From assembly GCA_017502845.1 (NCBI GenBank), contig JAFVUE010000008.1, positions 1 through 64,000 on the forward strand: a stretch of 64,000 nucleotides of DNA. Direction: 5' to 3'. Each line of letters starts with the position of its first letter. Position 1 is the stretch's first letter. The translations under genes were made by a program, and so were the position numbers. The notes under the pieces were generated by a model. It was not told where the DNA came from, did no database searches, and saw only the letters and a program-made list of their open reading frames with translations. This DNA is from Clostridia bacterium. GTDB lineage: Bacteria > Bacillota > Clostridia > UMGS1810. Of this stretch, positions 28,532 to 28,842 are shown piece by piece.

Positions 28532-28582
28532 TAAAATATCCACCGCTAATACGGTGGATATTTTTATGGGAGCAACAGGGCT
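28532..28582 (-). repeat. Duplicated tRNA-Val 3' end plus terminator, copy 1
   Basis: A 51-bp stretch, matching 28731-28781 at 50 of 51 positions. It comprises a 13-bp terminator stem (28533-28545 with 28552-28564) and the last 16 nt of the tRNA-Val acceptor/T-arm. It is not a complete tRNA. The sequence beyond 28582 diverges from the tRNA. Confidence 0.88.
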
Positions 28583-28715
28583 TCTCGTATGCTTCGCATC
28601 CGATTCGCTTGACGACCGTGCTTAAAAGCACAGTACCCGTCTGCGCACACTCGCTTCAAAACAATCCACCGATTGTTTTGTCCTTTCGCTCGTGCCTTCT
28701 CAGGTTCGAGCCCTG
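28583..28715. repeat. Hairpin-rich tRNA-derived segment
   Basis: About 130 bp with no credible gene. It has hairpins ATGC-TTC-GCAT (about 28589-28599), GTGCTT/AAGCAC (28618-28631) and AAAACAATC/GATTGTTTT (28658-28679). It ends in CAGGTTCGAGCCCTG (28701-28715), an exact inverted copy of the tRNA-Val T-arm. CAGGGCT (28576-28582) and AGCCCTG (28709-28715) bound it as inverted ends. It could be a small non-autonomous repeat or a structured RNA. Confidence 0.6.
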
Positions 28716-28730
28716 GACATTCCTATATAT

Positions 28731-28764
28731 TAAAATATCCACCGCTAATACGGTGGATACTTTT
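28731..28764 (-). terminator. Terminator of the tRNA operon (within repeat copy 2)
   Basis: The stem AAAATATCCACCG with its partner is followed by T's. Relative to copy 1 a single change makes a G-U pair in the minus-strand RNA but an A-C mismatch on the plus strand, consistent with function on the minus strand. The 51-bp repeat copy 2 spans 28731-28781. Confidence 0.85.
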
Positions 28765-28765
28765 A

Positions 28766-28838
28766 TGGGAGCAACAGGGCTCGAACCTGTGACCCTCTGC
28801 TTGTAAGGCAGATGCTCTCCCAGCTGAGCTATGCTCCC
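28766..28838 (-). tRNA. tRNA-Val (anticodon TAC)
   Basis: 73 nt. The acceptor GGGAGCA pairs with TGCTCCC, the D-arm has AGCTCAGCTGGGAGAGC, the anticodon loop is CTTACAA, and the T-arm is ACAGG-TTCGAGC-CCTGT. Discriminator A; CCA is not encoded. It is the last tRNA of the Met-Glu-Val operon. Confidence 0.97.
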
Positions 28839-28842
28839 AAAA

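What the first reader, a model, noticed from the sequence alone, without database searches (positions are those of the whole stretch)
28532..28781. tRNA-Val 3' end and terminator duplicated around a hairpin-rich tRNA-derived segment
A 51-bp unit (last 16 nt of tRNA-Val plus its terminator) is repeated 199 bp downstream at 50/51 identity. The segment between starts and ends with inverted CAGGGCT/AGCCCTG, contains three hairpins, and ends in an exact 15-nt inverted copy of the tRNA-Val T-arm (28701-28715). This looks like a tRNA-derived, SINE-like or satellite element that used the tRNA 3' end as its target, or a new structured RNA processed from the tRNA transcript.
Basis: partly seen in the sequence, partly recalled or inferred. 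Interest (0 to 1): 0.68.

Follow-up and report, generated by a model that had tools for sequence, protein, structure and literature searches.

The report
Guide-bearing RNA element behind tRNA genes
Behind this valine tRNA gene sits one copy of an undescribed family of small structured RNA elements that settle after tRNA genes in gut Clostridia, each carrying a copy of the host tRNA's last 18 bases and a 13-base stretch complementary to that tRNA; how they spread is unknown, but they do not need a reverse transcriptase.

Summary
It is one copy of a family of about 150-nt structured RNA elements, absent from Rfam, found in 63 of 291 sampled genomes of the class (often 5-10 or more copies each) and in one genome of another class. 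Nearly all sit 40-56 nt behind a tRNA or tmRNA gene, just past its terminator.

Three features recur. (1) A 13-nt guide exactly complementary to nt 51-63 of that tRNA, with sharp edges; even the variable loop bases 57 and 59 match. (2) A three-hairpin core with strong covariation, RNA sense equal to tRNA sense. (3) A second copy of tRNA nt 59-76, with identity jumping from 8% at nt 58 to 84% at nt 59, followed by a second terminator. The guide therefore spans the 58|59 joint where the copied tail begins. Nearly identical cores sit behind different tRNAs of one genome with both ends matched to each tRNA, so the element spreads or is copied between tRNA genes.

It is not a SINE: a 100%-complete genome with at least ten copies has no reverse transcriptase. 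It also has no IS110 recombinase. Best reading: an integrative or intron-like, guide-carrying RNA element aimed at the tRNA T-loop. Mover and chemistry are unknown.

The parts
28765..28839 (-). tRNA-Val (anticodon tac), host gene of the element
   Evidence: ARAGORN, Rfam RF00005
28729..28764 (-). T1: terminator directly behind tRNA-Val
   Evidence: inverted repeat plus T-run; near-identical to T2
28702..28714 (-). 13-nt guide: exact reverse complement of tRNA-Val nt 51-63 (AGGGCTCGAACCT)
   Evidence: sequence; family-wide rule
28582..28701 (-). structured core of the element (three stem-loops)
   Evidence: R1 covariance model match 28570-28717, 105 bits; covariation
28657..28680 (-). stem-loop 1, distal 10-bp hairpin
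28611..28641 (-). stem-loop 2 with conserved GGU bulge (GACGGGTACTG ... CGGTCGTC)
28589..28599 (-). stem-loop 3 (ATGC GAA GCAT)
28567..28581 (-). second copy of the tRNA-Val tail (nt 59-73; CCA not encoded here)
   Evidence: direct repeat; family-wide 58|59 boundary
28533..28566 (-). T2: second copy of the terminator
   Evidence: direct repeat

Best explanation
One member of a new family of small (about 150 nt), protein-free, structured RNA elements that live at the 3' ends of tRNA and tmRNA genes. Order in the tRNA sense: tRNA 1-76, terminator T1, 13-nt guide (complement of nt 51-63), three-stem core, copy of nt 59-76, terminator T2. SHOWN: the family, its anatomy, the RNA structure and strand, the exact guide and tail boundaries, persistence of tail identity after the terminators have diverged, tandem arrays, and near-identical cores behind different tRNAs of one genome with both ends fitted to each tRNA. 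INFERRED: the guide works as a splint or target reader. It can hold nt 51-58 of the tRNA and nt 59-63 of the second tail side by side on one 13-nt strand. The joint 58|59 would then be the point of insertion and of precise removal (at DNA level, or intron-like at RNA level), and the tRNA stays correct in either state because both tails are identical. The RNA is probably made by read-through of T1. Movement is in trans or RNA-driven. The enzyme, if there is one, is not next to the element and is neither a reverse transcriptase nor an IS110 recombinase.
For: Family and distribution. Position behind tRNAs and tmRNA. Tail boundary at 58|59 (identity 0.08 at nt 58, 0.84 at nt 59, at least 0.90 to nt 76; n=49). 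Tail 94% identical on average, 13 of 23 perfect, where T1 and T2 share <75%. Guide edges 51-63, with loop nt 57 paired in 60/64 (31 expected) and nt 59 in 62/64 (29 expected). nt 57 lies outside the copied tail, so its match must concern the tRNA itself. RNA structure: 92.5% of cells paired against 76.8% shuffled and 35-49% when slid, 23 of 33 pairs with double-sided changes. G.U 158 against A.C 44 cells on the tRNA-sense strand. Spread: cores 95% identical behind Leu and Ser tRNAs on different contigs of G003, 88-92% for Arg; core similarity follows genome (0.64) more than isotype (0.55). No Rfam match.
Against: No excised circle, spliced tRNA or transcript was seen; all data are sequence. 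No pair of near-identical strains with and without a given copy was available, so a clean empty site was not shown. Guides could be re-fitted after arrival by mutation and selection rather than used for arrival. T-arms resemble each other, so some of the guide match is shared by all tRNAs. No mover was found. 39 of 97 last units are followed by a 13-56 nt start of another unit, which a simple single insertion does not explain.
Confidence: 0.45

Rival explanations
1. A DNA satellite moved by tyrosine recombinases of islands or phages: the tail copies are attL/attR left by site-specific integration at the tRNA 3' end, and the RNA fold is secondary.
For: tRNA 3' ends are classic integrase sites. 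Integrases occur in all 24 tested genomes. Islands do sit in these tRNA loci, e.g. integrase next to the G007 array and truncated tRNA-Trp from the anticodon loop.
Against: The identity block starts at nt 59, so it omits nt 54-58 of the T-loop that a T-loop crossover would share. Strand-biased G.U pairs and covariation point to RNA. No integrase or other protein recurs next to the elements. Both ends change with the tRNA while the core stays the same, which a fixed attP cannot give. No copies in phage or plasmid records or exact-motif hits in viral contigs.
Confidence: 0.2
2. A host-useful cis-acting RNA: in read-through transcripts the guide invades the T-arm of the tRNA and the second tail can complete an alternative tRNA, so the element tunes or rescues tRNA production; copies spread by gene conversion.
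For: Guide and tail identity are kept to the element's own tRNA, which favours function in cis. The same tRNA-Val site is occupied in G000 and G001 although the cores are only 76% identical.
Against: Presence is patchy between congeners and isotypes: the tRNA-Trp site is filled in G011 and G015 but free in G013 and G014; most tRNA-Val genes have none. Also behind tmRNA and, in pieces, away from any tRNA. Tandem arrays.
Confidence: 0.17
3. A SINE-like retroposon: tRNA-primed reverse transcription, the 18-nt tail being the plus-strand strong-stop copy of the tRNA end that halts at m1A58, as in retroviruses.
For: The copied stretch is exactly the 18 nt 59-76, the same 18 nt that retroviral reverse transcription copies from its tRNA primer before stopping at m1A58 (PMC13191261).
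Against: No RVT_1 domain in G024 (100% complete, at least 10 copies), G125, G007, G008, G066, G092, G137 or G101. The segment complementary to the tRNA is nt 51-63, not the 3'-terminal 18 nt. Orphan and 5'-truncated cases are better explained by islands or other DNA inserted into tRNA loci or arrays.
Confidence: 0.06
4. Ordinary tandem duplication of a tRNA 3' end and terminator around an unrelated spacer.
For: T1 and T2 are nearly identical in many loci, and arrays with a period of about 200 bp exist.
Against: The same structured core lies between the repeats in dozens of genomes, and tails stay identical where terminators have diverged.
Confidence: 0.02

Closest known systems
Group I introns of bacterial tRNA genes
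   Same: A short guide near the 5' side pairs with the end of the upstream exon (P1) and the start of the downstream exon (P10), placing the two side by side (PMC3984707); here nt 51-58 and 59-63.
   Different: No group I core (no Rfam match); the site is the T-loop 58|59, whereas the cyanobacterial and fMet tRNA introns cited in that review involve the anticodon region; the tRNA is not interrupted because a full tail and terminator come first; no conserved G before the downstream tail.
IS110/IS1111 bridge RNA
   Same: Structured RNA of similar size carrying a guide that straddles an insertion point.
   Different: Bridge RNA has split guides pairing with opposite strands and a cognate recombinase (PMC11208160); here one contiguous 13-nt guide, and no IS110 protein in many carriers.
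tRNA-targeting genomic islands, integrative elements and phage satellites
   Same: Occupy tRNA 3' ends and keep the tRNA whole by supplying a tail copy.
   Different: No genes; about 200 bp; the ends are re-fitted to each of at least 11 isotypes and tmRNA.
SINEs / tRNA-primed retroelements
   Same: Small, protein-free, tied to tRNA; 18-nt tail coincidence.
   Different: Not tRNA-derived in body, and reverse transcriptase is absent from several carriers.
REP/RAYT and other bacterial palindromic repeats
   Same: Small hairpin repeats without genes.
   Different: Fixed position behind tRNAs with a tRNA-specific guide and tail; a Y1 transposase was not found in one carrier (G101, 92% complete) and occurs in many non-carriers.

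Membership tests
SINE / tRNA-derived retroposon | Body derived from a tRNA gene | tested here: not met
   Only the guide (13 nt) and tail (18 nt) are tRNA sequence; core has no RF00005 match
SINE / tRNA-derived retroposon | Reverse transcriptase available in the genome | tested here: not met
   PF00078 absent from G024, G125, G007, G008, G066, G092, G101, G137
Group I intron | Recognisable catalytic core | tested here: not met
   No Rfam intron match at E<=1 in nine loci
Group I intron | Guide pairing with both flanks of the joint (P1/P10-like) | tested here: met
   Guide complements nt 51-58 and 59-63
Group I intron | Conserved terminal G before the downstream exon | tested here: not met
   Nucleotide before the tail: T 32, G 9, A 9, C 6
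Group I intron | Interrupts the gene and is spliced | not testable with these tools
   tRNA is intact in DNA; no transcript data
IS110 bridge-RNA element | Cognate DEDD/serine recombinase present | tested here: not met
   PF01548 absent from G003, G008, G024, G032, G074, G101, G125, G137, G292
IS110 bridge-RNA element | Split guides to opposite target strands | tested here: not met
   Single contiguous 13-nt complement
Tyrosine-recombinase island at tRNA | Integrase gene in or beside the element | tested here: not met
   No recurrent neighbour protein in 53 regions
Tyrosine-recombinase island at tRNA | Duplicated tRNA 3' end flanking the element | tested here: met
   nt 59-76 copied
Any Rfam 15 family | Covariance-model match to the element | tested here: not met
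   Only the flanking tRNAs exceed thresholds
Structured RNA | Covariation beyond shuffled and slid controls | tested here: met

The most novel reading that the evidence does not exclude
A new class of self-acting RNA (ribozyme or RNA-only mobile element) that reads the T-arm of a tRNA with a 13-nt splint, joins or exchanges strands at 58|59, and colonises tRNA genes without any dedicated protein.
Probability: 0.15. Interest if true: 0.97.

Novelty: categorically new. Interest (0 to 1): 0.8.

Why it matters
It would be a protein-free element family with a built-in, tRNA-specific guide, present in many copies in abundant gut Clostridia and absent from Rfam. The exact guide and joint make a mechanism directly testable: RNA-guided insertion, or a new intron-like reaction, at the T-loop of tRNAs. 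It also bears on why tRNA 3' ends are hot spots for mobile DNA, and it affects tRNA annotation and assembly, since copies often lie near contig ends.

Tried and rejected
Rfam at relaxed threshold on nine loci (nothing but tRNAs). Viral contigs (exact motif), phage and plasmid collections (no hits). All-against-all comparison of ORFs around 53 elements for a partner gene (no recurrent family). Reverse transcriptase, IS110, Y1 transposase and tyrosine recombinase as movers: the first two excluded as requirements, the third not found in one carrier and common in non-carriers, the fourth ubiquitous and so uninformative. The idea that the guide is a native feature of tRNA terminators and the core alone inserts: almost every guide-bearing tRNA carries a core, a core variant or a remnant. 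Orphan copies as proof of free transposition: the two near-identical pairs (G024, 3.4 kb apart; G066, 8 kb apart) lie on one contig and strand and look like arrays split by other DNA. 5'-truncated tRNA fragments before some elements as retroposition scars: they match island attachment sites. Clean empty-site comparison within genera: loci too diverged or occupied by islands. Literature searches found no description; subscription papers are not held.

Full report
CHECK OF THE OBSERVATION. The segment between folds with z about -3.5 against dinucleotide shuffles on both strands. Rfam sees only the three tRNAs.

IT IS A FAMILY. A search of the window's own genome and 60 relatives with the segment gave three further matches in the own genome (two of them later confirmed as elements by the covariance model; the third, C1:115151, is partial and lies behind tmRNA), an 82% match at the same tRNA-Val in a congener, and many more distant copies. 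Printing the neighbourhoods showed the same plan behind tRNA-Ser, Leu, Pro, Lys, Trp, Ala, Arg and others, each with that tRNA's own sequences. A covariance model from 20 copies found matches at E<=0.001 in 63 of 291 genomes of the class, often 5-10 per genome, the scoring cap being 10 candidates. A phylum-wide draw of 398 gave one genome outside the class (G566), with the same plan behind tRNA-Met. Named records are uncultured Clostridia and Oscillospiraceae, mostly from ruminant guts. None was found in viral contigs (exact motif), plasmids or phages.

ANATOMY. Of 119 element copies examined, 65 lie within 75 nt behind an intact same-strand tRNA, nearly all at 40-56 nt. Isotypes: Leu 14, Pro 11, Arg 11, Ser 9, Lys 8, Ala 4, Trp 3, Val 2, Glu, Met and Thr 1 each. 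Others follow tmRNA, form the next unit of an array, or are cut by contig ends or separated from their tRNA by other DNA. The tail copy begins at nt 59: per-position identity to the host tRNA is 0.08 at nt 58, 0.84 at 59, 0.90 at 60, at least 0.96 at 61-72 and 0.90 at 76 (n=49). Where the two terminators share under 75% identity, tails still average 94%, 13 of 23 perfect, so the tail is held or refreshed separately from its neighbours. The inverted copy is a 13-nt guide with sharp edges: complement of nt 51-63, nt 50 at 10%. With the guide placed without reference to the tRNA, nt 51, 57, 59 and 63 pair in 62, 60, 62 and 62 of 64 copies against 35, 31, 29 and 32 expected. nt 57 is not in the copied tail and not in a stem, so this match can only concern the tRNA or its gene. 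The guide therefore covers the last 8 nt before the joint 58|59 and the first 5 after it.

RNA. On the MAFFT alignment 92.5% of pair cells are standard (shuffled 76.8%, slid 35-49%); 23 of 33 pairs have changes on both sides. On 122 copies the tRNA-sense strand shows 158 G.U against 44 A.C cells (this alignment is fitted to the model). So the functional form is single-stranded with the sense of the tRNA, most likely RNA. Conserved points are GAAC of the guide, an invariant GGU bulge in stem-loop 2 (GACG-GGU-ACUG / CGGUCGUC) in the 20 seed copies, and a GCGNAGC-type stem-loop 3 just before the tail.

SPREAD. Cores resemble each other more within a genome across isotypes (mean 0.64) than between genomes at the same amino acid (0.55). 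In G003 the Leu(gag) and Ser(gga) elements share 95% of the core on different contigs, with Arg(acg) copies at 88-92%; yet guide, tail and mostly both terminators are those of the resident tRNA. Arrays with a period near 200 bp are common. 39 of 97 last units are followed by the first 13-56 nt of another unit (0 of 97 in shuffles), which suggests insertion from a circular or multimeric form or frequent loss of units. Presence is patchy: tRNA-Trp sites are filled in G011 and G015 and free in G013 and G014; tRNA-Val has a full element only in G000 and G001 and a decayed remnant in G002.

MOVER. RVT_1 is absent from G024 (100% complete, at least ten copies) and from seven other carriers with good completeness; IS110 recombinase is absent from nine carriers. 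Y1 transposase is in 12 of 13 carriers but also in 8 of 11 non-carriers, and was not found in carrier G101 (92% complete). Tyrosine recombinases are everywhere. No protein family recurs beside the elements.

READING. The geometry is that of a splint: one strand can bind tRNA nt 51-58 and the second tail's nt 59-63 end to end, as the internal guide of a group I intron binds both exons (PMC3984707). Excision or insertion at 58|59, at DNA or RNA level, would leave a correct tRNA either way, which would explain why the second tail is kept identical. That step is inference. It is not a group I intron by sequence, not an IS110 bridge RNA, and not a SINE; the coincidence of an 18-nt tail with the retroviral m1A58 stop (PMC13191261) is noted but lacks a reverse transcriptase. 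The label 'categorically new' rests on absence from Rfam and from the open-access papers searched; a description in a paper not held cannot be excluded.

Noticed in passing
L046 (about 840-930) and L047, G015 and G012: After the last terminator at tRNA-Lys(ctt) the sequence continues as a degenerate inverted copy of the whole tRNA-Lys down to the D-arm, in two related genomes.
   Followed up: partly
L057, G011 tmRNA locus: Tandem array of larger (about 170 nt) element variants behind ssrA, ending in a guide joined directly to a tail and terminator without core, as if the core had been precisely lost.
   Followed up: partly
L204, L207, L283, L023 (complete genome G039): Core variants behind tRNA-Thr and tRNA-Pro lacking the GGUAC stem-loop 2 motif; the family is broader than the model R1.
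   Followed up: no
L267, L268, L269, L270 (contig ends of G008, G006, G007, G005): An odd truncated tRNA-Trp-like sequence (GGTCTCCAAAGCCGTGTTCCTATGTTGCAAATACTGCATAATAAAA), identical in three genomes of different genera and similar in a fourth; looks like a mobile or shared element carrying tRNA pieces.
   Followed up: no
L290 (G230), L295 (G210): Islands of about 4 kb and 1 kb inserted inside or just before the element array at tRNA-Arg(acg) upstream of a recD2-like gene.
   Followed up: partly
L180, G137: Whole tRNA-Leu(aag) duplicated on either side of an element, rather than only its 18-nt tail.
   Followed up: no
window 28765-28839; G000-G002, G015 loci: Several tRNA genes in these genomes do not encode CCA (tRNA-Val, Ser, Pro, Trp), and the element's tail copy likewise stops at about nt 73; where CCA is encoded, the tail includes it.
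   Followed up: partly
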